This document shows, piece by piece, positions 24,700 through 40,444 of a stretch of DNA of 64,000 bases. The notes under the pieces were generated by a model. The model saw only the letters and a program-made list of their open reading frames with translations, had not been told where the DNA came from and ran no database searches. The DNA lies in contig NZ_JADBEB010000001.1 of NCBI RefSeq assembly GCF_014874095.1, positions 1,364,001-1,428,000 of the forward strand, in the 5' to 3' direction. Made by a program: the position numbers and the translations under genes. Every line of letters begins with the position of its first letter. Position 1 is the stretch's first letter. Source of the stretch: Plantactinospora soyae (lineage in GTDB: Bacteria; Actinomycetota; Actinomycetes; Mycobacteriales; Micromonosporaceae).

Positions 24700-24804
24700 G
24701 ATGTATCAGGATTTGAATAGCGGGGACTAGGACCCTGGCTCTAGTTGATCACCGTGGGTGTCGACGCGCGGCCGGGTTGTGACCACCGTCTATCCTGGTT
24801 GTTC

Positions 24805-25665
24805 GTGGGCAATATCGAGGTGGACCTGAACAACCCTGCCGGCCGGCTCCTCTGGATGCTCGAAGAGGCCAACAAGCAGCTTGAGCAACCAGCCGTCCGA
24901 GTTTGGGCCGACATCTTCGACGTCGACCCAACCGACATGGCTGGACTCATGCGGGGTATCGCTGACGTCGCCGCAACTGCCGCAGACGTCCGTACCCAGA
25001 TCAACGCCCTGTCGGACGACCCGCAAATCTTCCTCATGCACTACGGGGAGGTCGAGCGCACGGTCGCCAAGTTCCCGTATATGGGCAATAACCATATGAA
25101 CTGGTTCCTGTCAGACTTCCGAGACACCGGCCGATACTGCCTCATCCACTGCTCCACCCTCCTCACCCGCCGCCAGCCGGAGCCGCGACTGGTCGACGAG
25201 ACGATTCAGAACCTGGTCAACGAGATCCACTCCATCCTCCGCGCGGTGGAGCACCACGAGAACCTGGACTCCGAGCTGAAGGCGTTTCTCCTGCGACATC
25301 TGCTGGTCTTGAAGCGAGCCCTCGAAGACTTTCACCTGTTCGGATCTAAACCCGTCGAGCAGGCACTCGACGAGGCGGTGGGTGCAATCGGCCGCAAGCC
25401 CCACCTCGTTGAGCGCATGCGGCAGAACAACTATGTCTCGGCGTTCATAGCGCTGTTGCTGTCCGTGGATGTCGCTCTCGGCATGGCGTCGAACACCAAG
25501 GCACTCACGGCCTCCCCCGTGAACCCGCCGAGCCCATCGCCGGCCGTCGCGGAACTGGCTCATCGATGCGAGATCCGGATCATTGACCGGTCGGACGAAC
25601 GGGAAACGGCCGATGCCTACGACGAATTCGAAGATTGGCCAGCACCGGCAAACGCCGGCTCCTAG
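24805..25665 (+). CDS. Hypothetical protein, mostly helical
   Basis: A 286-aa soluble helical protein. Recognisable stretches include MLEEANKQLEQPAVRVWADIF, LSDDPQIFLMHYGEVERTV and a helix-rich centre (LKAFLLRHLLVLKRALEDFHLF). The C-terminus is a Pro-rich linker and acidic tail. I do not recognise the family. GTG 24805 is preferred (TATCCT about 9 nt upstream, leaderless type); an in-frame TTG at 24745 would add 20 unconvincing residues. A hairpin follows directly. Confidence 0.6.
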   Translation: MGNIEVDLNNPAGRLLWMLEEANKQLEQPAVRVWADIFDVDPTDMAGLMRGIADVAATAADVRTQINALSDDPQIFLMHYGEVERTVAKFPYMGNNHMNWFLSDFRDTGRYCLIHCSTLLTRRQPEPRLVDETIQNLVNEIHSILRAVEHHENLDSELKAFLLRHLLVLKRALEDFHLFGSKPVEQALDEAVGAIGRKPHLVERMRQNNYVSAFIALLLSVDVALGMASNTKALTASPVNPPSPSPAVAELAHRCEIRIIDRSDERETADAYDEFEDWPAPANAGS

Positions 25666-25676
25666 ACGGACAGAGA

Positions 25677-25704
25677 AAGCCCGCCCGGCGAACCGGACGG
25701 GCTT
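25677..25704. terminator. Hairpin between convergent genes
   Basis: AAGCCCG-c-CCGG-cgaa-CCGG-a-CGGGCTT forms a GNRA-type (CGAA) capped stem 12 nt after the stop of the preceding gene and 15 nt from the convergent membrane gene. Confidence 0.8.
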
Positions 25705-25718
25705 CCCCTCGATCATTT

Positions 25719-25958
25719 CTACTTCAGCCGCTTCCGTTTACCGGGCGCATTGGCCAAGATCAGGAAAGCGGCTCCAAGTGGCAAGAAAGACAGCCACCCG
25801 AGGCCCGCGTTCAGCCAGACCCCGAACGCCGCGACCAGCGTCAGACACAACCACCACCTCCGGTGTCCGAGTCCCGGCAGGAACGTAATCACCGCGAGTG
25901 CGCCAACCGTGCCACCGACCAACAACCAGAACGCGGAGTGCGGGTCCCCCGCGATCAC
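25719..25958 (-). CDS. Small membrane protein
   Basis: A 79-aa protein with two or three hydrophobic helices (FWLLVGGTVGALAVITFLPG; LCLTLVAAFGVWLNAGLGWL; SFLPLGAAFLILANA) and a basic C-tail KRKRLK. GTG 25958 overlaps the stop of the upstream gene by four bases (GTGA), so it is coupled. Small membrane proteins of this kind are common next to GntR repressors in actinomycete integrative elements; the function is unknown. Confidence 0.65.
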   Translation of the reverse strand: MIAGDPHSAFWLLVGGTVGALAVITFLPGLGHRRWWLCLTLVAAFGVWLNAGLGWLSFLPLGAAFLILANAPGKRKRLK

Positions 25959-26254
25959 GCAGCAAGCCTGATCATCTTGCGGTACTCGTCGTGGCCCTCC
26001 TCGTTCTGCTGGCCGGTCTTCTCGTAGGTGGCCTCCCAGATCTCGCCCTCCCGGAAGCCCTTCTTCTCGCCCCGGTTGACCTCCGAAACCCAGAATGTCG
26101 GCGCCTTCCCGAGGAAGCGTGGGTCGAACCAAACCCACTGCCCCGGGTTCTCCCGCGCCGTTGTGCACGCGGCCAACAGTTCGCCGGAGTCGCCCCCGGC
26201 GCTGCCCGACCTCCGGATCGGCGGCTGGTAGTCCACCGGCATCAGCTGAACCAT
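25955..26254 (-). CDS. Small hypothetical protein of an integrative element
   Basis: A 99-aa soluble protein beginning MVQLMPVDYQPPIRRSGSAG, then ENPGQWVWFDPRFLG and FWVSEVNRGEKKGFREGEIW. It follows GAAGGGAATTTTG, making ATG 26254 the likely start. Divergent from the GntR-type gene at 26301 and coupled to the small membrane protein downstream. No family recognised. Confidence 0.6.
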   Translation of the reverse strand: MVQLMPVDYQPPIRRSGSAGGDSGELLAACTTARENPGQWVWFDPRFLGKAPTFWVSEVNRGEKKGFREGEIWEATYEKTGQQNEEGHDEYRKMIRLAA

Positions 26255-26300
26255 CAAAATTCCCTTCGCCTTCGCCCGCGTACCTCGCAGGCGCACGGGA

Positions 26301-26540
26301 ATTAGCGAAGCAACCACATACATCCCCGACTACCAGCGCATCGCGGATGATCTCCGCGAACAGATCAAGGCCGGCAAGTTGAAGCCCGGCGACAAGCTGC
26401 CCAGCAAGCGGGAGCTGCGCGAGATCTACGGCACCAGCGCACAGCCGGTAGACGCCGCGCTGTTCATGCTGCGCACCGAGGGCTATGTGGAGGGTCGCCA
26501 GGGCAAGGGCACCTTCGTGACCGACAAGCGGCCGTACTAG
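26301..26540 (+). CDS. Short GntR-type HTH repressor (KorSA-like), non-canonical start
   Basis: About 79 aa, a winged-helix GntR domain with no effector domain: YIPDYQRIADDLREQIKAGK, LKPGDKLPSKRELREIYGTS, DAALFMLRTEGYVEGRQGKG, TFVTDK. Short GntR proteins of this type repress transfer genes of pSAM2-like elements. The frame is open back to a TGA at 26247 but holds no ATG, GTG or TTG before the HTH, so the start is placed at ATT 26301 only as the most plausible near-cognate; otherwise the gene has lost its start. Confidence 0.6.
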   Translation: MSEATTYIPDYQRIADDLREQIKAGKLKPGDKLPSKRELREIYGTSAQPVDAALFMLRTEGYVEGRQGKGTFVTDKRPY

Positions 26541-26919
26541 CGCCGACTACTCCTTGAGCGGCGGCACGCAGGGGATCCTTTTGCTGCTCTCGCCGAAGTC
26601 GCTCGGTCAGGCGCCAGTACAGCGACCCGTCGCGCAGTCGGTAGCCGAACCAGCGCGTCGTCGTGGACTACCAGGCGGACTCTCCGACAACTCTGCCGTC
26701 ACCCCTGCTGCCGCGGGTCCAGTGAGGCACGGGTCCGAGTTAGAGATAGCTATCAGCTCTCTACGGCGGAGACCAACGTATGAATCCGAGGCAGCAAAAG
26801 CTCAACCTCATACCCGTACCTCCATGGATCTTCATGGAGGGTGATGCACGCTGAACTCCCAAAGGCCGTTGACTTCTCATGATGGTAGCCCCGTTGACGC
26901 CGGCTGAGAGCATGGGCCG
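26541..26919. other. Gene-poor spacer upstream of the paralog array
   Basis: No intact gene. On the minus strand near 26560-26680 a frame reads TTRWFGYRLRDGSLYWRLTE, coding-like but without a start and probably a scrap. Two -35-like TTGACY hexamers (26869 and 26893) precede the first array gene and may belong to its promoter; matching -10 boxes are not clear. Confidence 0.35.
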
Positions 26920-27408
26920 GTGGACAACGTCTGGGTCGAGCTGGCGGGGTTTGTGTTTGATGCCGTGTCGGGGCTCGGGGCGATAGCGGCGCTGGTGATT
27001 GCGGTCATGGCCTACAAGGTGGCGAAGCGGCAGGGGAAGCAGACCTTTGAGATTGAGGTGCTGCGAGAGCTAGCCTTGATGATCGAGAAGGATCCAAAGA
27101 TCGGGATGAGGATCGTTGAGAGCGAGCCCGGGGTTCCACCTATCGCGGAGTCGGCTGGTGTTCGGCTCGCCCTGCTGCCGAAGCATGAGCTGCCGTTGTG
27201 GCGTGCAGTAATCCGAGGCTCGACTGATCGCGATCCGTATTCACCGTATCTAACAGGGACCAGGAATGCCGCTGTCAACTCTGCGTTGAATCGGTATCTG
27301 GGCCCCGGGTGGCTGGCTGAGCAGCGAACCGCCTCGGGAACCGCCGAGCTTATAACGCACTACCTCAACCAAGAGATCCTTGACGCGATCGAACGGAGGT
27401 CGCGGTGA
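26920..27408 (+). CDS. Array paralog 1: single-TM protein with conserved QGKQTFEIEVLREL motif
   Basis: A 162-aa protein, N-terminus out or in unknown, with one TM helix (~8-31, FVFDAVSGLGAIAALVIAVM) followed at once by AYKVAKRQGKQTFEIEVLRE. Later it has LLPKHELPLWRAVIRG, and it ends YLNQEILDAIERRSR. The same three blocks recur in the next genes, so this is first of a four-member paralogous array. No catalytic motif seen. The start is GTG 26920. It overlaps the next gene by GTGA. Confidence 0.7.
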   Translation: MDNVWVELAGFVFDAVSGLGAIAALVIAVMAYKVAKRQGKQTFEIEVLRELALMIEKDPKIGMRIVESEPGVPPIAESAGVRLALLPKHELPLWRAVIRGSTDRDPYSPYLTGTRNAAVNSALNRYLGPGWLAEQRTASGTAELITHYLNQEILDAIERRSR

Positions 27409-27959
27409 GCCTTGATCTGCTCGGGTTGATCATTGATTCTGTGGTAGGGGTGGCAGGCATCGCAGGGCTTTTAGTGGCTGTCCGGGCATATCGAGTTGCG
27501 GGCGAGTCGTACAGGGTCTCTAAGGGGCAGGCTCGGAACAATTTTCAGATCGAGATTCTGCGGGAGCTCATCCTGCTGCTCGACGGCGATGCCGAACTGG
27601 ATACACAATTAGCGGGTGACCATTGGTATGTTTCTCCCAAACTCAGCTCGATCAAGTTGAGGCTGAGTTTGCTGCCCAAAAACGAGCTGCCAGTCTGGCG
27701 TGTGGTTTTCTGCGGCGGTCGATATGAACTATCAGGCCCCTATAAATCTCCGACTGATCTGCGTTACTTCGACACCGACTGGCCACGTATGAGGGATATG
27801 GTGGTCGACTCCTTCATGAAGGCGTACCACTCGCGCTATGGCTCCGATAAACTGGAGGAGTTCGTTCTGGGTAATCCTGATGGATGGGAAAGTAGCGCTG
27901 CTATAGTCCGGACGATTTTGAACAAGGAGATCCTTGATGCGGTTGAGCGACGATCCTAA
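27405..27959 (+). CDS. Array paralog 2: single-TM protein
   Basis: A 184-aa paralog of the preceding gene with TM ~5-28 (LLGLIIDSVVGVAGIAGLLV), then AYRVAGESYRVSKGQARNNF and QIEILRELILLL. It keeps LLPKNELPVWRVVFCG and the C-terminal ILNKEILDAVERRS. It carries a six-residue insertion (ESYRVS) shared with paralog 3. GTG 27405 overlaps the previous stop, so it is translationally coupled. Confidence 0.7.
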   Translation: MSLDLLGLIIDSVVGVAGIAGLLVAVRAYRVAGESYRVSKGQARNNFQIEILRELILLLDGDAELDTQLAGDHWYVSPKLSSIKLRLSLLPKNELPVWRVVFCGGRYELSGPYKSPTDLRYFDTDWPRMRDMVVDSFMKAYHSRYGSDKLEEFVLGNPDGWESSAAIVRTILNKEILDAVERRS

Positions 27960-27962
27960 GAC

Positions 27963-28502
27963 TTGACGGCGGCTGAGACCATCGAGGGTGTGGATCGTGA
28001 CTGGCTTGATTATGCGACCTTTGGGTTCACCGTCGTGTCTGGGACGGGTGGGCTGGTAGGTCTGTTCCTGGCAGTGAAGGCGTACGGGGTGGCGCATGAC
28101 TCGTACAAGGTCGCGAGGGGCCAGGCGCGGAAGTCTTTTGAGATAGAGGTCTTGCGAGAACTGGATCGCTTGCTGCCGTTGGACGATAATTCCGTCCATG
28201 AAGATCCTCAGGACTGCTCATTCTTAGAAAGAATGATGTCAAGCGAGATCAGGAGCGGGCTGCTTCATATCCCGCCGAGCGAGCTTCCGTTTCTGGCGTA
28301 CCTGAACAGGGTTGAAGCAAAGTTGATGTTGGTGGTTGATCAGGACGCTGCGGTCAAAGAGCTGGATGAGCTTCTTGTAAACAGAGATCCTCACCTGGCT
28401 AATGATTCCGGTCGCGGGATCCTCAAACGGTTCAGATGGGCGCTAGTGGTTGGTCTAGCTCGCAAGGAGATTCATGCAGCGATCAAAGCGCGGATGGAGT
28501 GA
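27963..28502 (+). CDS. Array paralog 3: single-TM protein
   Basis: A 179-aa paralog with TM ~18-40 (TFGFTVVSGTGGLVGLFLAV), then AYGVAHDSYKVARGQARKSF and EIEVLRELDRLL. The central block is diverged (IPPSELPFLAYLNR) and the tail reads LARKEIHAAIKARME. TTG 27963 begins 3 nt after the previous stop. The N-terminus is longer than in its siblings by about 10 acidic residues. Confidence 0.65.
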   Translation: MTAAETIEGVDRDWLDYATFGFTVVSGTGGLVGLFLAVKAYGVAHDSYKVARGQARKSFEIEVLRELDRLLPLDDNSVHEDPQDCSFLERMMSSEIRSGLLHIPPSELPFLAYLNRVEAKLMLVVDQDAAVKELDELLVNRDPHLANDSGRGILKRFRWALVVGLARKEIHAAIKARME

Positions 28503-28530
28503 CCTTGACTAGGGGTGGGAACATCTAATC

Positions 28531-28905
28531 GTGGACAAGGACCTGTTTGGACTGATCTTGGATGCGACGGCGACGAGCGCCGGGGTGTTCGCGATGTTCC
28601 TGGCGCTCAGGGCATACGAGATTGCGAAGAGACAAGGCCGACAGAATCTGGAATTGGAGATCCTGAGAGATCTGGCGACGCTGCTGGGAGATCCGGGTAC
28701 AGAGTTTGACCACACACGAGCGCTGTCTTTGCTGTCGTTCATCGGAATGAGGTATAGGGAAGGTGAGATGTCTGCCTGGAGGAATAAGGTACAGGAGGGC
28801 TTCCGGAATGACTCGGGAGTGACCTGCGTCCTGAATAGAAATGAGTGGTACGAGTTGCACTCTGAGTTGATGGCAAGGGTCTGGTCGATAGTGGAGAATA
28901 GGTAG
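28531..28905 (+). CDS. Array paralog 4: single-TM protein, shortest member
   Basis: A 124-aa member: TM ~6-27 (FGLILDATATSAGVFAMFLA), then ALRAYEIAKRQGRQNLELEI with LRDLATLL. The central ELP block is missing or strongly diverged and the tail is short (LMARVWSIVENR), so it may be a truncated or minimal version. GTG 28531, 28 bp after paralog 3. Confidence 0.65.
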   Translation: MDKDLFGLILDATATSAGVFAMFLALRAYEIAKRQGRQNLELEILRDLATLLGDPGTEFDHTRALSLLSFIGMRYREGEMSAWRNKVQEGFRNDSGVTCVLNRNEWYELHSELMARVWSIVENR

Positions 28906-29227
28906 CAGGTAGGTCATGACGTACCCCCTCCCACACGCTGCCGCTGCCCCCGGGCTATCTTGTCCTAACTGTACAGTTGCCCCTCTTGCTGTACATCGAT
29001 GTTCCTCGAACAAAGCCCGCAAGTCTTGTACAGAATCTAACTCTGTAGTTAGGTGCTGTAAGCACTCCAACTCGTTGTCGAGATCACCGGGGATCCCCAG
29101 CTCCTCGACTGGCCTTCGAGGCATTTTTTCGTGGTCCTCGGTAGCCTTTCCGGAACACATCAACGGAATCTCGGTAGGCATAGCGACAACTGTATTGCCG
29201 TTACGTGGAACGGCCAACCGAGACGAT
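28906..29227. other. Spacer with palindromes, no secure gene
   Basis: Contains the perfect palindrome AACTGTACAGTT (28967-28978) and the inverted repeat CTAACT-ctgt-AGTTAG (29037-29052); their arms share CTAACT. They may be one regulator's sites. A minus-strand frame here (from 29217) looks mildly coding but continues antisense through array paralog 4 and is not accepted as a gene. Confidence 0.4.
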
Positions 29228-29869
29228 CTAGTTCATGACCCAGCTCGACAGCAGGTTCACGAAGAAGCCAGCAACCGCCCCAAAGACGGCACTCCAAATG
29301 GCCAACCGAATCCCCGACCGACGCGACTTCTCCATCTGTTCGTTGTGTACCGCCGTCAGCTTCTCTATCTCTTCCTTCAACTTTCGCTCGGTCTGGGCAC
29401 CGAGAAGCAGACCTATCTTGCGTGCCTGATCTTCGCTCAGGTCGGCGGCAGCCTGGGCGGCATCGGCCCGGCGCACAAGATCGTGTACCTCAGTCTCGAA
29501 CGCCTCCGCCTTGGCGCTGATCTGACGCATCTGCGTGACCGTCGAGGCGAGCGTGGCCGCTACGACCCTTATTTCGTCTTCTAGCGACGGCACCCGGACC
29601 GGAACGGTGGCCCGAACAGAGCCAACAGCGCTTGCCGCTTTGCTCTCGAATTCGTTGCGATCGCTCTCATGCTCCTTCCGCCGCATCATCAGCAGAACGA
29701 CGGCACCAACGCCCAATGCGGTCAGGAGCCCGCCGACCAGGATCACAAGCCACGGGCCAGGTCCGGGGTCCGACACAATGTAGTAGGGCTGAATGACCGG
29801 TTCCAGTGTGGGAGCGGGAGTGGGAATGGGAGTCAACGAACGAGATAACGGACCGATGAGGTCAAGCAC
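29228..29869 (-). CDS. Membrane protein with coiled coil and two TM helices
   Basis: A 213-aa protein. A Pro/Thr-rich N-terminus precedes TM1 (~42-62, WLVILVGGLLTALGVGAVVL). A cytoplasmic coiled coil follows (EIRVVAATLASTVTQMRQIS; DLSEDQARKIGLLLGAQTER; LKEEIEKLTAVHNEQMEKSR), then TM2 at the end (GIRLAIWSAVFGAVAGFFVN). Its plan of coiled coil followed by a C-terminal TM matches the two proteins encoded at 31012 and 31695. Function unknown. Confidence 0.65.
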   Translation of the reverse strand: MLDLIGPLSRSLTPIPTPAPTLEPVIQPYYIVSDPGPGPWLVILVGGLLTALGVGAVVLLMMRRKEHESDRNEFESKAASAVGSVRATVPVRVPSLEDEIRVVAATLASTVTQMRQISAKAEAFETEVHDLVRRADAAQAAADLSEDQARKIGLLLGAQTERKLKEEIEKLTAVHNEQMEKSRRSGIRLAIWSAVFGAVAGFFVNLLSSWVMN

Positions 29870-29939
29870 CGACGTAGGTTACGTCCGACGGCCGACTGCC
29901 ACCAGGCCCTCTCAAATGATCGTCATCAAGCTCGTCTGC

Positions 29940-30182
29940 TCAGGCCGGCCGGTGCGACTGGCCGGGCGACCATCGCAGGCTCTTTGTCACACCGGGACAG
30001 TCACTGTTGAGTCGGTGCTCCTCGTTTAGCAGCTCGATCTCGCTCTCCAACCAGGACAGCGCGTCATCCAGCGTCATGTCGTGGTGCTCCGTACGGCGCC
30101 GATACAGCAGATCAGCGACAGTGGCGAACGACTGCGCCGTCAGGTGCTTGATGGGATCGCAGAACTCGCGGGTCTTGGCCAC
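29940..30182 (-). CDS. Small soluble protein downstream of recombinase
   Basis: An 80-aa helical protein (MAKTREFCDPIKHLTAQSFA; TVADLLYRRRTEHHDMTLDD; ALSWLESEIELLNEEH) with a GTG start 14 bp after the recombinase stop, so probably co-transcribed. It could be a recombination directionality or accessory factor; nothing in the sequence proves this. Confidence 0.6.
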   Translation of the reverse strand: MAKTREFCDPIKHLTAQSFATVADLLYRRRTEHHDMTLDDALSWLESEIELLNEEHRLNSDCPGVTKSLRWSPGQSHRPA

Positions 30183-30196
30183 GCCGGCTCGCTCCT

Positions 30197-30916
30197 TCAG
30201 CCCGACGCCGCCCCGATCTCGTCGGCGTTCTTGAGAATCCGATAGACCGTGTTAGCTTGCCAGCGCCCACCGCGCTTGCCCAGAGTCCCCTGGTCGTTGA
30301 GGCGCGTTGCGATCGCGTTGTCGTTGACGCCCTCGGCTCGCCAGTCGCGCATCTGGGCAAGGACCCGCTGCTCAGCGTCGTTCTCGACCAGGTGGCCGTC
30401 CCCGTCGTGATCCCAGCCGTACGGCTCGCGGGCGTAGACCTGACCGGTCCGTCGCTTGTGCTTGAGCGTGTTGCCGGTCCGCTCCCCGATCAGCTCGCGC
30501 TCGAACTCACCCAGCAGGACGCGCAGCCTCGCGAAGAACCGCCCCATCGCCGTGGTCAGGTCGATGTGATCGTCCAGGGACAGCAGCCGCACCGGGTTCC
30601 GCCGGCCGTTCGGGATCATGCGGCGGATGAGCGTCATCCCGTCCTCGGACTCGCGGGTGAGCCGGTCGAGGTTGGTCACGATGATGATGTCAGCCCAGGG
30701 GTTGTGCTTGGCATCGATCAGGTCGCTGACCCGCCTGCCGTGCTCACGGTCGGCCAGCGCGGTCTTCCCGGAAACGTCGATGTCTTGGATGAACTCGACC
30801 AGGTCGTACCCGTAGGCGACGCAGGCCGCGGTGACCCGTGCGCGGTCGTCCTCCGGTCGATTCTTCTGGTCCTCGGTGGATACCCGTGTGTAGCCCACAG
30901 CACGGGGGCGAATCAT
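30197..30916 (-). CDS. Serine recombinase (resolvase/integrase type, medium length)
   Basis: A 239-aa recombinase. The catalytic Ser is S13 in GYTRVSTEDQ, and the resolvase fold continues with IIIVTNLDRLTRE and LGEFERELIGERTGN. Residues ~180-235 are a partial recombinase domain with ATRLNDQGTLGKRGGRWQAN and TVYRILKNADEIG. It lacks the zinc and coiled-coil domains of large phage serine integrases, so it is a resolvase- or transposon-type enzyme. ATG 30916 and GTG 30940 are both possible. It may have mobilised part of the island. Confidence 0.85.
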   Translation of the reverse strand: MIRPRAVGYTRVSTEDQKNRPEDDRARVTAACVAYGYDLVEFIQDIDVSGKTALADREHGRRVSDLIDAKHNPWADIIIVTNLDRLTRESEDGMTLIRRMIPNGRRNPVRLLSLDDHIDLTTAMGRFFARLRVLLGEFERELIGERTGNTLKHKRRTGQVYAREPYGWDHDGDGHLVENDAEQRVLAQMRDWRAEGVNDNAIATRLNDQGTLGKRGGRWQANTVYRILKNADEIGAASG

Positions 30917-30945
30917 GCCCGAATCGGCTGATACTCTCACAAATG

Positions 30946-30972
30946 ATTATACCAACCGAGCTATTGGTACAA
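30946..30972 (-). promoter_or_regulatory. Recombinase promoter with internal operator
   Basis: On the minus strand TTGTAC (30972-30967) and a perfect TATAAT (30951-30946) are 15 bp apart. TACCAA...TTGGTA (30950-30969) is an inverted repeat between them, well placed for repression. TATAAT is rare in this GC-rich DNA. Confidence 0.6.
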
Positions 30973-31011
30973 CGACGACTAATTGTCGCCCCGAGACGCC
31001 GACAGCCGGTC

Positions 31012-31593
31012 CTACTTGGTCAGCCACTCGAACAGGAAGTTGCCCGCCACGCCCAGCGGCACGGAGCCGGCCAGACCGAGTAGGAAGTACTGGATCTGCT
31101 GCTTCCTGCCGGCCTTGGAACTCTGGTCGATGCCAAAACTGATCATCCTGGTCGCCTCATCAAAACCTTCTCCGAGGGTCTTTACCGCCTCACGAACGCC
31201 CCGTTTGACCGTCTCGTCCACAAGCTTCTCGACTGTCTCTGCTTTGTCCCTATCCAGGGCGGCAAGCCGTTCATAACGAACAGCGTCGGCTCGGACTCGC
31301 TCAAGTGTCGCGTTGCGCATTTGCAGTTCAGCCTCAAGAACCGGCAGCAGCGCTGCAATCTCCTGTAGGTGTCCCTGAACCTCGTCGACACGCGCTGTTA
31401 ATGGATCGGAACTATCACTAGCCTTTTGGATGCGGCGTATAGCTTGTAGATTTCCAGCCCGAAGCCATACCTGTAGTGGCTGAAGAAGTGGACCTTGCCA
31501 ACTAACCCTGTACGACAAATCAGCCTCGGACAAGTCACACCGTGGTCCCGACTCTCGGTCCGTCTCATCCTCATCGCCGGCATCGCCTACCAT
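31012..31593 (-). CDS. Coiled-coil protein with C-terminal membrane anchor (paralog A)
   Basis: A 193-aa protein. ATG 31593 follows GGAGGTGGCGCG. A hydrophilic N-terminal half leads to a coiled coil (VQGHLQEIAALLPVLEAELQ; ERVRADAVRYERLAALDRDK; AETVEKLVDETV) and a single C-terminal TM (IQYFLLGLAGSVPLGVAGNF) ending FEWLTK. It is a clear paralog of the gene at 31695 upstream on the same strand. A tail-anchored topology is likely. Confidence 0.65.
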   Translation of the reverse strand: MVGDAGDEDETDRESGPRCDLSEADLSYRVSWQGPLLQPLQVWLRAGNLQAIRRIQKASDSSDPLTARVDEVQGHLQEIAALLPVLEAELQMRNATLERVRADAVRYERLAALDRDKAETVEKLVDETVKRGVREAVKTLGEGFDEATRMISFGIDQSSKAGRKQQIQYFLLGLAGSVPLGVAGNFLFEWLTK

Positions 31594-31694
31594 CGCGCCA
31601 CCTCCGCCCGCGCAGTTCCAATGTATTGGTCGCCTGTGTATCACGGAGAATCGAACGGCAGATACAGCCGTTCGTCCACTCAATGGCAGATGCC

Positions 31695-32183
31695 CTACTT
31701 CAGCCACTCCCAAAGGACGTTGGCGATCAAGCTCAGTGGGATGGCTAGCAGGCCAGCAAGGATGAAGAAGCGAAGCTGCTGCCGGCCGCCAGTCTTCGAG
31801 GTCTTCGCCAGTTCCTGGACCACGAGCGCCGTCGCCTCAGTGAGCGCGGTCTTCCGGTTCTCGTCCACGAGCTTCTGCACGGCCTCGGCGTGGTCCTTGT
31901 GCAGGGCGGCGTAGCGCTCGGTCTGCTCGGCCTCGGCCCGCAGCTCCTCGAAGGCGGTCTGCCGGACCTTCAGCTCGGCCTCCAGCTCGGGCAGCAGATT
32001 GGCAATGTCTCTGAGGTGGCCTTGTACCTTCGCGATGCGTGAGAGTAGCGGGTCGCGAGCGGCCCTTTCTCTGGCGGCGAACACCTCCATTAGCGTTCTT
32101 ACCTTCTCGGCGTCGCCATCGGTGCGCAATCGCAACGGCCTTGACCGCTGCGGCGGCGGACCGAGATCACCGTCAAAGACCAC
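31695..32183 (-). CDS. Coiled-coil protein with C-terminal membrane anchor (paralog B)
   Basis: A 162-aa protein matching paralog A through the coiled coil (VQGHLRDIANLLPELEAELK; EELRAEAEQTERYAALHKDH; AEAVQKLVDENRK) and the anchor (LRFFILAGLLAIPLSLIANV, ending LWEWLK). The N-terminal ~40 residues differ. GTG 32183 follows GCGGAGGTAGGCA. The two genes also have similar ribosome-site sequences, consistent with duplication. Function unknown. Confidence 0.65.
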   Translation of the reverse strand: MVFDGDLGPPPQRSRPLRLRTDGDAEKVRTLMEVFAARERAARDPLLSRIAKVQGHLRDIANLLPELEAELKVRQTAFEELRAEAEQTERYAALHKDHAEAVQKLVDENRKTALTEATALVVQELAKTSKTGGRQQLRFFILAGLLAIPLSLIANVLWEWLK

Positions 32184-32405
32184 TGCCTACCTCCGCTCGC
32201 GCCGGAGACAGGTGTACCACAGGCGGTCAAGCCACGGTCACGGAGAGCTTGATCAACGCCGAGGGGCCGGCACCGACGTACCGACCCCTGATCTTGATCC
32301 AATTGGAGAGAAGGCTCAGATCGCCGTGCGGCTTCTCCAGCTCTGAACGATCCGCCGGAACTCGATTCCCCTGCTCGGAGAAGGTTCAGGCGGAAGGAGC
32401 TGGAC

Positions 32406-32789
32406 TCAGGTCAGACTGAGAACCAGCCAAACCACCCCTGTAACCAACAGAGCTGCCGTTCCGCCGACAACCCCGTAGATGATCCTGTTCTTTGCTCTGG
32501 CGATGAGGCCCGAGTCTCCATCGGACCGCATGTAGGAGCTGCCGCCCGCAATCACCATCGACACAGCAATGAGGCCGATGGCAGCGGAGACGAGCACCAG
32601 TACCAAGTTGGCCTGGAAGAGGCCAGCGTCGACACCGCCGAGGTAGATGATCGCACCGGCGATGAGGTTCGCCAGCACGTTGATGAAGACGTCTCCGATA
32701 AAGCCTCGGGCCGCAGCTGCCGCTGGTGGTGGAACCGGCCGATGTTCGTGGCTTGGCCGCTCCACCACCTCGCTCTGCGTCCGCACCAC
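32406..32789 (-). CDS. Membrane protein with about three TM helices
   Basis: About 127 aa. A Pro/His/Ala-rich cytoplasmic start leads to three hydrophobic segments: FINVLANLIAGAIIYLGGV, NLVLVLVSAAIGLIAVSMVI and IIYGVVGGTAALLVTGVVWL. GTG 32789 is a guess; the frame is open much further upstream, but that part is antisense to the HTH gene at 32871. Unknown function. Confidence 0.5.
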   Translation of the reverse strand: MVRTQSEVVERPSHEHRPVPPPAAAAARGFIGDVFINVLANLIAGAIIYLGGVDAGLFQANLVLVLVSAAIGLIAVSMVIAGGSSYMRSDGDSGLIARAKNRIIYGVVGGTAALLVTGVVWLVLSLT

Positions 32790-32870
32790 GAGCTGCTGAC
32801 TCTGTTTACTGCTTCGTCGCAACGACCGCCCAGAGAAGGCGGGAGCGTGGCTTGCAGGCCAAGTTGACCG

Positions 32871-33208
32871 ATGGCGAAGGTGCAACCGATTAGGCCGGGC
32901 AGCATCAAGGGCATGATCCACACTCTGCCCGAGGTCGCCTGGATGACCGGCCTGTCGCTGCGGTCGATCCAGAGCGGCTGCCGCCAAGGACGCATCGAGC
33001 ACATCGCCAGGGGCAACGGCACCATACGCATCCGCCGGGGCATGACCGCGGAGTCCAAGTCGAGAAACTGCTCGCACAGCGGACGGTGCAGGCAACCTCG
33101 CCCCCGCAGTCTGAACCAGAGCCCCTCGGCGACCTGGCCGAGGCGATCGCCGCAACCCGGAGACGGCTGGCCCGCTACTCCGGGCGCTCGACTGGCCGGC
33201 GGTCCTGA
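32871..33208 (+). pseudogene. Excisionase/MerR-like HTH gene, frameshifted
   Basis: Residues 1-60 (PRPGSIKG-like start, then HTLPEVAWMTGLSLRSIQSG and CRQGRIEHIARGNGTIRIRR, GMTAE) form a helix-turn-helix of the excisionase type. After GMTAE the frame degrades, but skipping two bases (TC, near 33055) restores QVEKLLAQRTVQATSPPQSE and a natural end ARYSGRSTGRRS at a TGA (33206-33208). So a 2-bp insertion has probably broken the gene. It would control excision or a neighbouring promoter. Confidence 0.6.
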
Positions 33209-33209
33209 C

Positions 33210-33389
33210 GTGCCCCACTACGCGATGGACGATCCGCGCCTCCAAGAGGAAATCGAGCGGATCGCCGCCGGGACCGCCGCGAACTGGAAGGTCGACGACG
33301 AGATGTTGGCCCGCCTGTCCGTGCTGTTGAACCCGCCATCGCCGCCGCATGCACCAAGGGATGCTGACCCCGGCGGGCGACCCGCATGA
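33210..33389 (+). CDS. Small acidic protein after the HTH gene
   Basis: A 59-aa peptide with GTG one base after the preceding stop: VPHYAMDDPRLQEEIERIAA, then GTAANWKVDDEMLARLSVLL and a Pro-rich tail. Spacing suggests coupling to the HTH gene. It ends 30 bp before the left end of the IS701-type element. Unknown. Confidence 0.5.
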   Translation: MPHYAMDDPRLQEEIERIAAGTAANWKVDDEMLARLSVLLNPPSPPHAPRDADPGGRPA

Positions 33390-33418
33390 GTGTCCGATGA
33401 TTAACGCGAACAAGCTAG

Positions 33419-34861
33419 TACGGCAGTCGCCGTTCGTGAGGTGACCTCGGGTCCTGCCGGAACAGGTGCGGCCACCGCGTGATCGTCTGTGCGTTGTGGA
33501 CACAACATTCGATGCCGCGGTGGCCGCAGACCATAGCGTAGACGCTGCCCGGTGGCGGCAGATATCGGACCAGGTGATCGGCTGTTTCGCGGGCCGGTTC
33601 GCGCGCGTGGAGCCGCGCCGGGCGGCGGCCGGGTTTCGTCACCGCGCTGCTGACCGATATCGAGATCAAGACGTGCTGGCAGCTGGCGGAGCGGGCCGGC
33701 CACGCCCGACCGGACGCGATGCAGCGGCTGCTGTCCCGGGCAAGGTGGGATGCTGACCTGGTCCGTGACGACCTGCGTGCTCTCGTGGTCGACCGGCTCG
33801 GTGACCCCGACGGCGTCCTTGTGGTCGACGAGACCGGTGACCTGAAGAAAGGCGTGCACACGGTCGGCGTCCGGCGCCAGTACACCGGCACCGCGGGCCG
33901 GATCGAGAATGCCCAGGTCGGCGTGTTCCTCGCCTACGCCGGCCGGCACGGGCACACCCTGATCGACCGACGGGTCTATCTGCCCGAGTCCTGGACCAGT
34001 GACCGTGAACGTTGTGAACAGGCGGGTGTCCCCGACAGCGTCGGGTTCGCGACCCGCTCCCAGCTGGCTGACGACATGATCACCGCAGCGGTTAAGGCGC
34101 GGGTGCCGGCTCGGTGGGTCGCCGCGGACGAGGCATACGGCAACAACACCGCCCTGCGCGTCCGCCTGCGCGAACATGGTCTCGGTTACGTCCTCGCGGT
34201 CTCCCGCGACCACCTTGTGCCCCTCGACGGCGGCAAAACCCGCCGCCGCGCCGACCAGGTGACCGCCGAACTGCCGGCCACGACGTGGACCCGGCGCAGC
34301 GCCGGTGACGGGTCGAAAGGGCCCCGCTTCTACGACTGGGCCTGGCTCGCCGACGTGACCACTGACAACGATCCCGACGACGGCGGGCATCACAGTCTGT
34401 TGATCCGCCGCAACACCACAACCGGCGAGCTGGCGTTCTACCGCTGCTGGGCGCCCGGCCCGGTCACCCTTGCCCAACTCGTGCGGGTAGCAGGGATCCG
34501 CTGGACCGTCGAAGAATCGTTCCAGGCCGCGAAAGGGCAGGTCGGCCTCGACCAGCACCAGGTCCGCCGCTGGCAGTCCTGGCACCGGTTCACCACCCTC
34601 GCCCTGGCCGCCCTGGCCATCCTCGCGATCTGCGCCGCCGCAACACCCCAGCCACCCGACCAGTCCGACATGATCCGGCTGACCGTCAACGAGATCCGCC
34701 GCCTGATCAACGTCCTGATCAACACGCCGATCCGCAGCATCGCCCACCGTTTGCGCTGGTCACAATGGCGACGGCGACACCAGGCCCGAGCCCGGCGAGC
34801 GCACTACGCCCGCCGACTCACCCTCGAACTCCAGCCATGATCACAAACGGCGGCTGCCGTA
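33419..34861 (+). mobile_element. IS701-type insertion sequence with CTAG target duplication
   Basis: Terminal inverted repeats of 21 bp (33419-33439 and 34841-34861) begin TACGGCAG and agree at 19 of 21 positions. They are flanked by CTAG on both sides (33415-33418, 34862-34865), a 4-bp YTAR duplication as expected for the family. Length 1443 bp. It inserted between the small gene ending 33389 and the HTH gene at 34874. Confidence 0.87.
33496..34840 (+). pseudogene. IS701-family DDE transposase with a +1 frameshift
   Basis: The first ~50 codons (VDTTFDAAVAADHSVDAARW...) end in GGGTTTCGTC at ~33641; removing one T joins to the main frame VTALLTDIEIKTCWQLAER and then 33719-34840. The DDE residues are visible in VVDETGDLKKG, VAADEAYGN and ESFQAAKGQVGLDQ. 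Full length would be ~447 aa, normal for the family. IS701 elements are not known for programmed frameshifting, so the extra T likely inactivates it or is a sequencing error. Confidence 0.8.
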
Positions 34862-34873
34862 CTAGATGCTCCG

Positions 34874-35086
34874 GTGAACGATGATCGTGTGCTCATCCCG
34901 CTCGCCGAGGTTGCCGGCCGTACCGGCTGGTCGGAACGGTCGCTCCTCGACGACTGTCGCGCGGGTGTCATCGATCATGTCTGCCGCAAGGGCTCATACA
35001 GCTTCACGCGCTGCCAACTCGACGCACTGATCGCCCGTTACACGGTTGCCGGCTCCCCCGAGCCGGTAGACCGCAGCCGAGCGTGA
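34874..35086 (+). CDS. Excisionase-like HTH protein, possibly frameshifted at the end
   Basis: A 70-aa HTH protein (VLIPLAEVAGRTGWSERSLL; DDCRAGVIDHVCRKGSYSFT; RCQLDALIARYTVAG) similar in layout to the gene at 32871, with a GTG start 8 bp from the IS end. Shifting one base near the end (after VDR) gives AEREARELDEVISGTSAHLD, a better helical C-terminus, so it too may carry a small indel. Family: MerR/excisionase-type DNA-binding domain. Confidence 0.6.
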   Translation: MNDDRVLIPLAEVAGRTGWSERSLLDDCRAGVIDHVCRKGSYSFTRCQLDALIARYTVAGSPEPVDRSRA

Positions 35087-35188
35087 GGCGCGTGAGCTGG
35101 ACGAGGTTATCTCCGGTACATCCGCTCACCTCGACGAGCTACCAGGAGGTACCAGGCAGCTTTCGGGCAGACCCCCTTTGATGATGAA

Positions 35189-35809
35189 TCACAGATGCCC
35201 CTCGCTTCTCAAGCCAGAGGTTAGTTCCTCGTCGCCTAGGTGACCCGTCGGGCGGACCACCCCGGGCGGACACAGATTCGATACCGGCATGTCAAACCAC
35301 TGGGTGGCGACGATCGCGTTGTTCAGCACAATGCGCGCAAGCGACTGCCGCTGCTGCACTGTCTTCAATCGAGTCAACTCCACTGCCGGCAGCAGACCGC
35401 GGTTGCGGATCACCAGCGCGATCGCACACCCATCCGGGTCCATATGTTGCAGGAGTTGTTGGGCAGACGCCTGGTGGATGCCGAGGTTGAGCAAACCCAC
35501 GCCTACAACGTGGGTGGTGAGTGCCGGGTCGGCGGCGATCAGCCCGATGTGGTGTTCCTGGCAGGGAAGGCATTCGTCATACTTGGCCGCGATCGCGTCG
35601 AGGAACGGGCGCATGTTCATCGTCTGCATGCGTCCGCTGCTGTCCCTGGCCACGTCGTAATCGGCCGCGTAGATCTGGATCATTTCATGGTCGGCGCCGA
35701 CTGGTCGCGGATGGTTTGGGTGTGTGTCGGACGATGTTGGCGGCCGAGAGCAGGGCCGGGGGGCGACCTTGTTGTCGTAGAAGTCTGCTGGGAGGCCCGA
35801 AGAGGTCAT
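35189..35809 (-). CDS. Hypothetical protein
   Basis: A 206-aa soluble protein starting MTSSGLPADFYDNKVAPRPC. The core is helical: MRPFLDAIAAKYDECLPCQE, VGLLNLGIHQASAQQLLQHM, IALVIRNRGLLPAVELTRLK. No family recognised. ATG 35809 follows a GGAAAG-type site and the start of the gene is divergent from the TM protein at 35913. The CPxC-like pair (CLPCQEHH) might bind metal. Confidence 0.55.
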   Translation of the reverse strand: MTSSGLPADFYDNKVAPRPCSRPPTSSDTHPNHPRPVGADHEMIQIYAADYDVARDSSGRMQTMNMRPFLDAIAAKYDECLPCQEHHIGLIAADPALTTHVVGVGLLNLGIHQASAQQLLQHMDPDGCAIALVIRNRGLLPAVELTRLKTVQQRQSLARIVLNNAIVATQWFDMPVSNLCPPGVVRPTGHLGDEELTSGLRSEGHL

Positions 35810-35912
35810 GGATGCATCTTTCCGCTTCCGGCGGAGTCCATCAACGACCTGCGCGCAGTCGCCTACCCGACAACCACGTGACCCGCCCCCCGGCGCTGCC
35901 GGTGAAGCCCGT

Positions 35913-36626
35913 GTGAGGGAACCCGAACCACCACACAAGCGCAGCAACCTCTGGAAGCGGCACCCCAACGGTCTGTACGTGCCAGCCAACCATAAAGCGA
36001 GCCCCCCAGAAAACGGACGACCGGAGCGGCACAAAGTTACCGACTGGCTCCAAGGCATCGGGACGATGGTCGCGTCTGTCATCGCCGCCATGGCTCTCCT
36101 GGTCAGTGCGCTCGCCATGAACGACCAGCAGCGCATAAATGAGGAAACACGAGATCGAACAACGCGCCGATATGCTTCTAGGGTTACATGGGACACTGAG
36201 TTGAAGGACGCCGCCGAGATCTTGCACATTCACAATCGGGCGCCCGCACCCCTTAACTCGGTACAACTGGAGATGCGGGTACTCGATCTAAAGCAACCCG
36301 GGTCCCGTGGATCTGGGCCAATGCTCTTGGCACTGCCAGGAATTGTCATTCAGCCATGCTCGACCACAAGCTACAGCATCGACTACAGCGACAAACTAGC
36401 ATCCCACCTCACAAAGACTGCCGAGCCCGGCGTGATCGATCAGCCCTACATCGCTTCGTTTGTTGCGCTGTATTTCACTGACTTCTATGGAGATTGGCGC
36501 TTGCCCTCCGGGGAATCTGCGCAGTACAGCGACATCTCGGCTCTGTGGAAACTAATCTCTGGCGGGACCCTGAAAGAGATACCCAACTCGCATCGAGATC
36601 TTCCCGATTGCGGGGAAGGCGGCTGA
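35913..36626 (+). CDS. Single-TM hypothetical protein
   Basis: About 237 aa. The N-terminal ~45 residues are basic (EPPHKRSNLWKRHPNGLYVP), then one TM (TMVASVIAAMALLVSALAMN) and an outside/inside beta-rich domain of ~150 residues (EILHIHNRAPAPLNSVQLEM; PCSTTSYSIDYSDKLASHL; ALYFTDFYGDWRLPSGES). It resembles single-TM 'effector' proteins with a beta-sandwich but no known family is clear. GTG 35913 is the first sensible start. Confidence 0.55.
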   Translation: MREPEPPHKRSNLWKRHPNGLYVPANHKASPPENGRPERHKVTDWLQGIGTMVASVIAAMALLVSALAMNDQQRINEETRDRTTRRYASRVTWDTELKDAAEILHIHNRAPAPLNSVQLEMRVLDLKQPGSRGSGPMLLALPGIVIQPCSTTSYSIDYSDKLASHLTKTAEPGVIDQPYIASFVALYFTDFYGDWRLPSGESAQYSDISALWKLISGGTLKEIPNSHRDLPDCGEGG

Positions 36627-36632
36627 TCCTCG

Positions 36633-36839
36633 TCACTCACACACATCGGTGTCGCCCCGCCCGTGGCCCTCGCAGCAGTCCGGCCGATGCCCGTGCGCCC
36701 GCACCTCAACACCCCGCATCCGCCGATGCTCACCGGTCCGCTCATACAGGCAAGAACGCCACACCACCGTGCCGCCGGCCACCTCCACCTGCTGGCCCGC
36801 GCCCGGCCCGCCGACCAGCACCACCATCTCCGTGACCAT
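36633..36839 (-). CDS. Small protein with GGPxxG start
   Basis: A 68-aa protein, MVTEMVVLVGGPGAGQQVEV then GGTVVWRSCLYERTGEHRRM, His/Cys-rich at the end (CCEGHGRG). The beginning resembles the small protein at 42879 (VIVHLRGGPADGVVRDL), a type of short beta protein common in actinomycete mobile elements. Function unknown. Confidence 0.5.
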   Translation of the reverse strand: MVTEMVVLVGGPGAGQQVEVAGGTVVWRSCLYERTGEHRRMRGVEVRAHGHRPDCCEGHGRGDTDVCE

Positions 36840-36972
36840 GTGCCGCAGGGTAGCGGCAACGGGCGACGTTTCAGCAGGTCAGGCCGACAAAACGTGACCC
36901 ACCTGCACGTCGCACTGTCGGGAACTCGACCAGCAACCCCCGAGTTCGCCCCGTGCCACCGACAATTCCCCG

Positions 36973-37242
36973 ATGGGCAACATCGAATACGCGTACCTGC
37001 ACCTCTTCCCTCAGGGCACAGGCAGGCACCTCAAATACAAGGGCGAACTAGAAGACATGCGTGGTGTACAGAAGCTTCGCGGCGACAACTTCCTCGCGCT
37101 CCTGAATGCCGTCGGCGCCGAGCGGTGGACCGTCTGGAAGCGTGCCGACGACCTTGTTCCGCCAGCGATGTGGGCCCCGATCATTGACCGGCTGATGCCA
37201 AGCAGGCCTGAGTCGACCTGGACGTTGATCCTCCGCCGTTAG
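36973..37242 (+). CDS. Small hypothetical protein
   Basis: An 89-aa soluble alpha/beta protein: MGNIEYAYLHLFPQGTGRHL, LRGDNFLALLNAVGAERWTV, WKRADDLVPPAMWAPIIDRL. Composition is natural. No family recognised and there is no clear ribosome site (possibly leaderless). Confidence 0.5.
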   Translation: MGNIEYAYLHLFPQGTGRHLKYKGELEDMRGVQKLRGDNFLALLNAVGAERWTVWKRADDLVPPAMWAPIIDRLMPSRPESTWTLILRR

Positions 37243-37385
37243 GTTGCTACACGCCGGTCAAGTAGGTGTTCCCGCCACCGCCACGCCAACTCGACACACC
37301 CAGCACCAGCGAGAGCGAGACTCGCACCCTCCATCACCGCGAGCACAAACGCGACGAACCCCGTCCGGTACGAATGCTCGGCCAC
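37239..37385 (-). CDS. Possible small hydrophobic protein
   Basis: A 48-aa frame with one TM-like stretch (FVAFVLAVMEGASLALAGAG) and charged tail WRWREHLLDRRVAT. GTG start at 37385; the stop overlaps that of the convergent gene. Weakly supported. Confidence 0.3.
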   Translation of the reverse strand: MAEHSYRTGFVAFVLAVMEGASLALAGAGCVELAWRWREHLLDRRVAT

Positions 37386-37612
37386 CCGACTCGGGGACCC
37401 GGACGTCAGCGATTCACCACCCTGTCCACTTGAGGCGCCCCGCCTCGGCCAGGAAGGCTGCGGTGGCGTCCTCGTGCTGCTCTGTCATCCATGATGGTCA
37501 CGTCCACGGGAGTGGTGTACGACTTGCCCGTGCTGGGCGTGTTGCGTAGATGGGAGACGGCCACCGCGCGATCCTTCGAGACGGCTAAGTCAACAACGAA
37601 GGAGACAACGCG

Positions 37613-38117
37613 ATGGCCGCATCTGAGAGTGTGAACTCTGCTGACCTGCTACGCGAGCAGGTGGAGTCCGCCTTGCCGGACGTTGCGGACGATGGTGAAG
37701 ACGTTCGCGCAGGCGTTGATGTCCGCCGAGGCGGACGCGATCTGCGGTGCACCGTACGGACAGCGCAGCGAGGAGCGGGTCAACTCCCGCAACGGCTACC
37801 GGGCCCGGGAGTGGGACACCCGCGCCGGCACGATCGACCTGGCTGTTCCGAAGCTACGCACGGGTTCGTACTTCCCGGACTGGCTGCTGACCCACAGACG
37901 GCGTGCCGAACAGGCCCTGGTCTCGGTCGTGGCCACGTCGTACCTGCTCGGAGTCTCCACCCGACGGGTCGAAAAACTCGTCGAGCAACTCGGGATCAGA
38001 CAGCTGCCGAAGTCGCAGGTCTCGGAGATGGCGGCGCATCTCGACGCCCAGGTCGAAGCGTTCCGCAACCGACCCCTCGACACGGGGCCCTACACCTTCG
38101 TCTGGATGGACGCGCTG
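37613..38117 (+). pseudogene. IS256-family (mutator) transposase remnant
   Basis: The ATG at 37613 follows GAAGGAG and begins MAASESVNSADLLREQVESA. A small indel at ~37682 shifts into LRTMVKTFAQALMSAEADAI, then RVNSRNGYRAREWDTRAGTI and AVPKLRTGSYFPDWLL, typical of IS256. The frame continues to FVWMDALT, the first catalytic Asp, and then stops matching at ~38117, so about the 3' 60% is missing. Non-functional. Confidence 0.82.
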
Positions 38118-38181
38118 ACGACGGGCCAACGATCATCAACATCCTCGACGGGACGGCACGATCGTTGGGAAAGCCACCCCG

Positions 38182-38427
38182 ATGAACAATGGCACGCGGA
38201 TGGTCGGGTGCGACGATCCCCAGCTGCACGCGACCATCATCGCGGCCCCGGGTCACGGTCGGATCGTGTTCGCCACCAACCGCGCATACAACGTGGCCAC
38301 CATGTGCGCGTGCTGCAAATACACGATGGACGCTATCGATGGGTACGTGACCAACCGCAACGGCCGGGACGTCGTGGTGTGCATCGACTGGTGCGGCGGA
38401 CACGACGACGCGTGCGTGACGTTGTGA
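38182..38427 (+). CDS. Small Cys-containing hypothetical protein
   Basis: An 81-aa protein (MNNGTRMVGCDDPQLHATII; FATNRAYNVATMCACCKYTM; IDGYVTNRNGRDVVVCIDWC) with six Cys, including CACC. It lies just past the IS256 breakpoint and has a natural composition. It may be an intact small gene of the host element; unknown function. Confidence 0.5.
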   Translation: MNNGTRMVGCDDPQLHATIIAAPGHGRIVFATNRAYNVATMCACCKYTMDAIDGYVTNRNGRDVVVCIDWCGGHDDACVTL

Positions 38428-38489
38428 GCTGAACCCACCGACCCCCGGCCGATCGTGGCACCGGAGGTCGGAGGTAGTGCGGACTAGCG

Positions 38490-38774
38490 TCATGCCGGAC
38501 GTCGATACGAATCCCGGAGCAGCACCAGCCCGGCTACCTGTACGAAGACCTCCCGCCGGTCGAGCGCCTTGCCACCCGCGTCGACCACGTAGCCGGTGAG
38601 CCACAGCCACCCGTGGTACGTCGGCCGGGGGTCTACCGTCGCCACCCGCAGCATGAATTTCCGCCCGCCGCCGAACTGCACGCTTGCGCCAGCCCCCACG
38701 CCGACCACATCGCCCGTTACCGGGGTCCGGTTCACCAGTGCCGGCCCTGGTTGCGCATCTTGACCCGCTGGCAC
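38490..38774 (-). CDS. Small beta-rich hypothetical protein
   Basis: A 94-aa protein with a coding-like core FGGGRKFMLRVATVDPRPTY, HGWLWLTGYVVDAGGKALDR and REVFVQVAGLVLL. Divergent from the GntR-type gene at 38990, the same arrangement as 25955/26301, so it is probably repressed by it. The GTG start at 38774 is uncertain. Confidence 0.55.
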   Translation of the reverse strand: MPAGQDAQPGPALVNRTPVTGDVVGVGAGASVQFGGGRKFMLRVATVDPRPTYHGWLWLTGYVVDAGGKALDRREVFVQVAGLVLLRDSYRRPA

Positions 38775-38906
38775 GTCTCACCGCAGCGGCAGACCGTTCG
38801 GTTGTGGAGGGTGGACCACACCGGCCCGTGGCGGGTGACGATCCGTGCAGCCTCGTGTCGGAGCCACCTGATCCAGAACATCCGGACCTCCAGCCTACGT
38901 TACCTA

Positions 38907-38921
38907 GTACACGCCGTGTAC
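38907..38921. promoter_or_regulatory. Palindrome between divergent genes, candidate GntR operator
   Basis: GTACACG-c-CGTGTAC is a perfect 7-bp inverted repeat, nested within a second pair GTTAC...GTAAC (about 38899-38937). It sits between the minus-strand gene at 38490 and the GntR-type gene at 38990. Confidence 0.6.
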
Positions 38922-39211: not shown

Positions 39212-39212
39212 C

Positions 39213-40421: not shown

Positions 40422-40444
40422 CAGTTCGTCCTTTCATCTCGTGG

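What the first reader, a model, noticed from the sequence alone, without database searches (positions are those of the whole stretch)
26920..28905. Four-gene tandem array of paralogous single-TM proteins
Four adjacent coupled genes share an N-terminal TM and then AY-x-[VI]-A...Q-[GA]-[KR]-x-x-[FL]-[EQ]-[IL]-E-[VI]-L-R-[ED]-L. Two also share [LP]LPK-x-ELP and a KEILDAxERRS-type tail. I know no named family like this. Tandem diversification within a mobile island is typical of defence, immunity or partner-recognition genes.
Basis: partly seen in the sequence, partly recalled or inferred. Interest (0 to 1): 0.72.

Follow-up and report, generated by a model that had tools for sequence, protein, structure and literature searches.

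The report
Tandem one-helix membrane proteins, unnamed family
Four neighbouring genes in an actinobacterium encode related, uncharacterised proteins that seem to hang from the cell membrane by one helix running on into the cell; the relatives found are rare and scattered, one of them in what looks like an integrated virus, so they may be cargo of mobile DNA whose job (perhaps protection) is still to be tested.

Summary
In detail: four adjacent genes (26920-28905, +) encode paralogous one-TM proteins; after removing the TM, no shuffle of 60 reached the real score in any of six pairs. They lie in a 19.6-kb island absent from 4 of 4 congeners with a contiguous site. Pfam and PADLOC gave nothing accepted for the four, nor PHROGs and NCBIfam for three of them. 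Relatives: 14 of 354 genomes of the same family, own included, one hit dropped by eye; 15 loci, two tandem. One lies in a Micromonospora costi prophage, about 0.9 kb from the holin gene. New: the stretch between TM and the F-E-L-E block has seven lengths in 19 sequences (12, 16, 19, 23, 26, 30, 40), all in two classes modulo 7 (Monte Carlo P 0.0004), with 1 proline in 589 residues against 109 in 2267 downstream. This suggests one continuous coiled-coil-like helix; the window paralogues come in a short and a one-heptad-longer form. Best reading: self-associating membrane-anchored cargo proteins with diverged cytosolic parts, possibly protective. Defence is not shown; no structure could be predicted.

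The parts
26920..27408 (+). Gene A, 162 aa: one TM, short form (12 residues from TM-exit Ala to Phe of FEIE), LLPKHELPLWR, tail EILDAIERRSR
27405..27959 (+). Gene B, 184 aa: one TM, long form (19 residues), LLPKNELPVWR, tail EILDAVERRS; start overlaps stop of A
27963..28502 (+). Gene C, 179 aa from TTG, or 170 aa from GTG 27990: one TM, long form (19)
28531..28905 (+). Gene D, 124 aa: one TM, short form (12), shortened cytosolic part
24701..44325 (.). Strain-specific island: collinearity with congeners stops at 24699-24701 and resumes at 44326-44329 (44712 in G005); they hold about 2 kb of other DNA here
   Evidence: in G001, G003, G004, G005; G002 and G006 are not contiguous across the site, and G006 has one 156-base match (72%) to 38526-38681
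30197..30940 (-). Serine recombinase, C-terminal part short (Resolvase 2.6e-27; Recombinase positions 3-52 of 102)
26734..26770 (.). Imperfect inverted repeat upstream of A (13-nt arms, 77%), possible operator, untested
26819..26840 (.). Perfect 8-nt inverted repeat, loop 6, upstream of A, untested

Best explanation
The array is a set of four diverged copies of a small actinobacterial family of N-out, C-in single-TM proteins. A short N-terminus is outside; the TM helix leaves the membrane and continues without a break as a coiled-coil-like helix into a conserved F[EQ][IL]E.LR[ED]L block, followed by a divergent cytosolic part with an LLPxxELPxW element and an EVxxAIxxR-type tail. The helix pairs chains in parallel (inferred), and the diverged cytosolic parts each engage a different partner (inferred). 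The short (12) and long (19) forms, one heptad apart, would favour pairing of like with like (inferred). The genes travel at least partly as cargo of phages and integrated elements; the most likely service is protective, such as exclusion of a competing element at the membrane (inferred). Shown: family, topology signal, length rule, mobile setting of about half of the loci. My estimates: family and topology 0.9; continuous helix 0.8; self-association 0.6; protective cargo 0.3.
For: Paralogy. Full-length homology of the near group (A3, 7 rows) and part of the wider group (A5, 7 rows): hhalign probability 99.3%, E 2e-20. Topology: one TM, net charge -1 or -2 before and +2 to +4 in the 20 residues after it, in 7 of 7 near members. 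Helix: the 19 family sequences give the same lengths in four MAFFT modes; seven distinct lengths in two classes mod 7, P 0.0004, while moduli 3-6 and 8-11 give P of 0.36 or more; proline 1 of 589 against 109 of 2267, Fisher 3e-10. Control: the next interval, F to W, falls in six residue classes mod 7 in the same 19 sequences. Mobile setting: island absent from 4 of 4 congeners; a virion-protein gene, a holin gene and a phage-type regulator around the M. costi member; serine recombinases within about 3 kb in the window, L054 and L056; L055 and L057 share four gene pairs, and L057 has a primase/helicase-like gene; a transposase related to one in the window beside the G432 pair.
Against: In 7 of 15 loci (L047-L053) no mobile-element gene was recognised, though only two genes per locus were scanned, and some flanks look like ordinary chromosome (MFS, DprA, dehydrogenase). 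No PADLOC hit to the array. No match in 72,556 plasmids with five queries or in 50,697 phages with four. Four viral-contig scans: two found the same M. costi locus, the wider-group profile found none, the fourth was for another family. The length rule proves neither a dimer nor a function and rests on 19 related sequences. L120 and L124, distant relatives, were left out of the count because their anchor moves with the alignment mode (16, 18 or 23), and 18 would break the rule. The tree places winC and winD poorly.
Confidence: 0.32

Rival explanations
1. Tandem immunity array: each membrane protein neutralises a different variant of an antibacterial toxin, as strings of tsaI or esaG genes do in Staphylococcus aureus.
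For: Tandem, diverged copies with a conserved N block and variable remainder; the S. aureus precedent is in the abstract of PMC9484751.
Against: No toxin gene recognised among the neighbours scanned, and for secretion only two weak matches below cut-off in the window (VirB8 0.012; T4SS_pilin 0.0059); most relatives are single genes; a prophage lysis-module position is unusual for such immunity genes (recalled).
Confidence: 0.15
2. Element-control proteins: membrane-tethered sensors or tethers that regulate the element itself (lysogeny, excision, replication), the helix passing a membrane signal to the cytosolic part.
For: Length rule like that of coiled-coil signalling linkers (PMC6798134 passages); placement near recombinases or a regulator in some loci.
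Against: Too few residues outside the membrane for a sensor domain, no effector domain recognised inside; neighbours differ from locus to locus.
Confidence: 0.2
3. Relics: non-functional genes in a decaying island rich in transposase fragments.
For: Transposases and a short recombinase in the island; D is shortened; B and C fail the host-trained codon score and all four have low third-position GC, 0.61-0.72.
Against: Four open frames; in all six pairs position-3 differences exceed those at positions 1 and 2, and about half of identical residues have changed codons; length rule kept across genera.
Confidence: 0.15

Closest known systems
DUF6082 (PF19560), actinobacterial one-TM proteins
   Same: N-terminal TM, basic juxtamembrane stretch, small remainder; 2 of 13 rows of A6 carry a 21-residue insertion after the TM
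   Different: Different conserved blocks; profile comparison gives probability 0.8%
Coiled-coil linkers / signalling helices of sensor histidine kinases
   Same: Helical linker whose length shows seven-residue periodicity (PMC6798134, passages read)
   Different: No kinase, PAS or other signalling domain found here; steps of 4 modulo 7 are also used
T7SS immunity strings tsaI / esaG (PMC9484751, abstract read)
   Same: Tandem strings of non-identical paralogues
   Different: No toxin partner seen; sequence relation not tested; here most loci are single-copy
Phage superinfection-exclusion membrane proteins (recalled)
   Same: Small membrane proteins carried by prophages
   Different: No PHROGs match at or below 0.001 for 10 proteins tested

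Membership tests
DUF6082 (PF19560) | Profile match over gathering score | tested here: not met
   Best weak match 14.9 bits against 26.7 for G432b; array proteins none
DUF6082 (PF19560) | Profile-profile homology | tested here: not met
   hhalign probability 0.8%
Known anti-phage systems (PADLOC 2.0.0) | Model match of array proteins | tested here: not met
   0 families for each of 4 proteins at E up to 1
Known anti-phage systems (PADLOC 2.0.0) | Protection against phage | not testable with these tools
   needs a bench test
Phage protein families (PHROGs v4) | Significant match | tested here: not met
   10 proteins run, 3 of them window genes (none matched); best E 0.0012, for the doubtful member L034
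Prophage conversion (moron) genes | Location in a prophage outside the structural operon | tested here: inconclusive
   Looks met at 1 of 15 loci, L046; neighbours of the window array were not run against PHROGs
Coiled-coil membrane linker proteins | Length variation keeping heptad or stutter register | tested here: met
   19 sequences; two distant relatives left out as undecided
Coiled-coil membrane linker proteins | Experimental or predicted coiled-coil structure | not testable with these tools
   structure prediction switched off
T7SS-type immunity arrays | Cognate toxin gene nearby | tested here: inconclusive
   none recognised, but most island frames are unnamed

The most novel reading that the evidence does not exclude
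A new family of phage- and island-borne membrane proteins in which the length of one rigid TM-to-cytosol helix, stepped in heptads, sets which paralogues assemble together, so that a tandem array gives several parallel, non-mixing membrane recognition complexes against rival elements.
Probability: 0.12. Interest if true: 0.68.

Novelty: new variant of a known kind. Interest (0 to 1): 0.42.

Why it matters
If right, it defines an unnamed membrane-protein family carried at least partly by actinobacterial mobile elements and gives a simple, testable sequence rule (seven-residue length steps) for a continuous membrane-to-cytosol helix, with natural short and long forms side by side in one operon. 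It would give a handle on unnamed one-TM proteins of actinobacterial islands and prophages.

Tried and rejected
DUF6082 as parent family: rejected by hhalign. Weak hits such as Pkinase_C, Gram_pos_anchor, archaeal histone and FeoB_C are far below curated cut-offs and were ignored; so was the one PDB hit, E 0.056. Search hits dropped before counting: G161, G273, G373 and G465, G576, G963 and G907 (L116, L117), which by reading share only a TM stretch and carry pentapeptide-like repeats; G196 (L017) and L115, L118, L119, L121, L122 as too weak; G521 (L129) was not examined. So one search had 8 of 397 genomes, of which 3 kept (own, G432, G312); one search had 15 of 354, 14 kept; one search had 9 of 394, 2 kept (own, and L120 by reading); one search had 4 of 33, 3 kept, none new. 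In some searches only the best 8-10 candidates per genome were scored. L120 and L124 (another family of the class, taxon not tested) were left out of the length count. L034 is kept but doubtful; without it six lengths remain, still in two classes. Gene conversion between paralogues: not supported, identical residues in the conserved block differ in codon in 67 of 139 cases (48%), against 73 of 120 (61%) after it; the same lean appears in the seven-sequence set that includes other genomes (55% and 65%). No tRNA or tmRNA in the window or in four congeners' versions of the site; no Rfam family inside the island at the gathering threshold, one (6C) about 1.6 kb to its right. A first genome-collection scan with A1 found no relative; the second, with A5, found three loci, all already known. 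Paper searches showed no description of this family in their listings; that speaks for those searches only.

Full report
Observation. The four genes are open frames in one direction with operon spacing. Gene A against the whole 9.7-Mb genome finds the other three and nothing else convincing; the 19-row profile agrees, its fifth hit being E 0.03. To rule out that a shared TM makes them look alike, I compared only the parts after the TM: in each of the six pairs 0 of 60 shuffles reach the real score. Third codon positions differ more than first and second in all six pairs, and about half of the identical residues use different codons, so these look like old duplicates under protein-level constraint. 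Identity is 47% up to LREL and 24% after it. Against this, a codon score trained on the window's long GC-rich frames accepts A and D but not B and C, and third-position GC is 0.61-0.72 (most frames called outside the island lie between 0.84 and 0.95); I read this as foreign origin, but it also fits decay.

Setting. Right and left flanks match all 7 genomes of the genus that were searched, own included. In G001, G003, G004 and G005 the flanks are separated by about 2 kb of other DNA where the window has 19.6 kb (24701-44325). G002 and G006 could not be read across the site. The island region has lower GC than the flanks and holds a short serine recombinase, a DDE transposase and a Mutator-family transposase fragment, and many unnamed frames. 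So the array sits in acquired DNA among decayed mobile genes. Whether the island is a prophage was not tested.

Relatives. The four array proteins have no accepted match in Pfam or PADLOC; three of them (D was not run) have none in PHROGs or NCBIfam. The family profile has one PDB hit, E 0.056, not credible. Gene B alone matches only its own genome among 151 genomes searched. A profile of the four (A1) found two near loci in another genus of the same family: a tandem pair in G432 and a single gene in G312. With these added (A3), 15 of 354 genomes of the family match at E up to 0.001; one (G576) I judge a different protein, leaving 14, own included, with 15 loci (the locus in G072 is doubtful). 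In a sample of 394 genomes of the class A3 finds only the own genome; the wider profile A4 finds 9 of 394, own included, of which I accept one distant relative, L120, by reading. A search with that protein matches 2 of 200 genomes of its family, itself included. Three loci have named records, Micromonospora costi, Paractinoplanes ferrugineus and Actinoplanes liguriensis (contig lengths equal those of G574, G490 and G501), so the family is Micromonosporaceae. The near group and seven of the wider group align end to end (hhalign 99.3%). The family is rare, patchy and not strain-private.

Anatomy. Each of the seven near members has one hydrophobic segment with net acidic residues before and basic ones after: N-out, C-in by the positive-inside rule (established knowledge). 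After the TM comes a stretch of presumed helix, the F[EQ][IL]E.LR[ED]L block, an LLPxxELPxW element, and a tail with EVxxAIxxR. Genes B and C, and G432a, carry seven more residues in that stretch than A, D, G432b and G312. In the 19 sequences the count from the TM-exit alanine to the phenylalanine of the block is 12, 16, 19, 23, 26, 30 or 40, identical in four MAFFT modes. These seven lengths fall in two classes modulo 7 (5 and 2), as heptad and four-residue (stutter) steps would give; drawing seven distinct lengths at random from 10-42 gives this 0.04% of the time, and moduli 3-6 and 8-11 give P of 0.36 or more. I noticed the pattern before testing it, so P is somewhat flattering. The next interval, F to W, falls in six classes modulo 7 in the same sequences. 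Proline is 1 of 589 residues from the TM exit through the block and 109 of 2267 after it. I read this as a continuous helix whose register is kept. The seven-residue dependence of coiled-coil linkers is known for histidine kinases (PMC6798134, passages read); the S-helix paper PMC1592074 was seen only in a listing.

Context of relatives. In M. costi (L046) the match at 7876-8364 (+) lies downstream of a gene with a virion-protein match and a holin gene at 6502-6969 (PHROG E 1e-27; similar to the holin of Actinoplanes phage phiAsp2 over 46% of its length at 49% identity, E 5e-4), with one opposite-strand frame between, and before an opposite-strand regulator with a PHROGs match of 3e-84; the same DNA is held as an IMG/VR contig of 112 kb. 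L054 and L056 have serine recombinases within about 3 kb. L055 and L057 share four gene pairs and L057 has a primase/helicase-like gene. The G432 pair adjoins a transposase related to one in the window. The G312 gene lies near a RelA/SpoT-domain protein that matches PADLOC candidate PDC-S33 and, by eye only, a transposase. So 7 of 15 loci (window, L023, L046, L054, L055, L056, L057) have mobile-element evidence from a call and L024 by eye; L055 counts only through its shared genes with L057. The other seven (L047-L053) showed none, but only two genes per locus were scanned. No gene family was shared by all neighbourhoods (simple gene calling, so genes may be missed).

Mechanism. What is shown is a membrane-anchored family with signs of one continuous helix and a diverging cytosolic part, found on mobile DNA in about half of the loci. 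What I infer is parallel self-association through that helix, one partner per cytosolic part, and a protective role for element or host. The tandem array would then hold several specificities, with short and long helices keeping complexes apart. The immunity-array and element-control readings remain open, and decay cannot be excluded without expression data. A weak, partial PADLOC match of the neighbouring protein at 29228-29869 to DruC1 (1.7e-4) is over a coiled-coil-like stretch and I give it little weight.

Limits. No structure could be predicted. The length rule rests on 19 related sequences; distinct lengths, not sequences, were counted to limit the effect of kinship. The anchor of L120 and L124 is unsure (16, 18 or 23; 18 would break the rule) and they were left out. 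The tree has few supported forks (3 of 16 inner branches starred), so the order of duplications is not resolved; A and B pair with 88/90 support.

Noticed in passing
31012-31713 and 31695-32183 (-): A second tandem pair of paralogues (43% identity over 131 residues, E 8e-33), coiled-coil-like with a C-terminal TM by reading, no accepted Pfam match; short match (34 residues, 51%) in an IMG/VR contig (L131); none in plasmids.
   Followed up: partly
29228-29869 (-): Protein with a hydrophobic stretch near each end by reading; weak partial PADLOC match to DruC1 (1.7e-4) and weak VirB8 match below cut-off; not clearly related to the pair above (E 0.076).
   Followed up: partly
45914-45986 (-): 6C RNA (RF01066), 68.8 bits, about 1.6 kb right of the island.
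   Followed up: no
24412-24700: About 290 bases conserved at 83-87% in four congeners, cut off at the island's left edge; looks like the remnant of a longer gene.
   Followed up: partly
L024 12509-13639 (-): RelA/SpoT-domain protein matching PADLOC candidate system PDC-S33 (1.9e-18), about 2.5 kb from the G312 family member.
   Followed up: partly
L049 9548-11410 (+): NB-ARC/TPR protein near the G667 family member.
   Followed up: no
L017 908-1417 and 1414-1983: A one-TM protein whose frame overlaps the end of a 169-aa frame in G196; TM region resembles the array proteins, relation unproven.
   Followed up: no
A6 rows L061, L074: Two DUF6082 proteins carry a 21-residue insertion after the TM, again a multiple of seven.
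   Followed up: no
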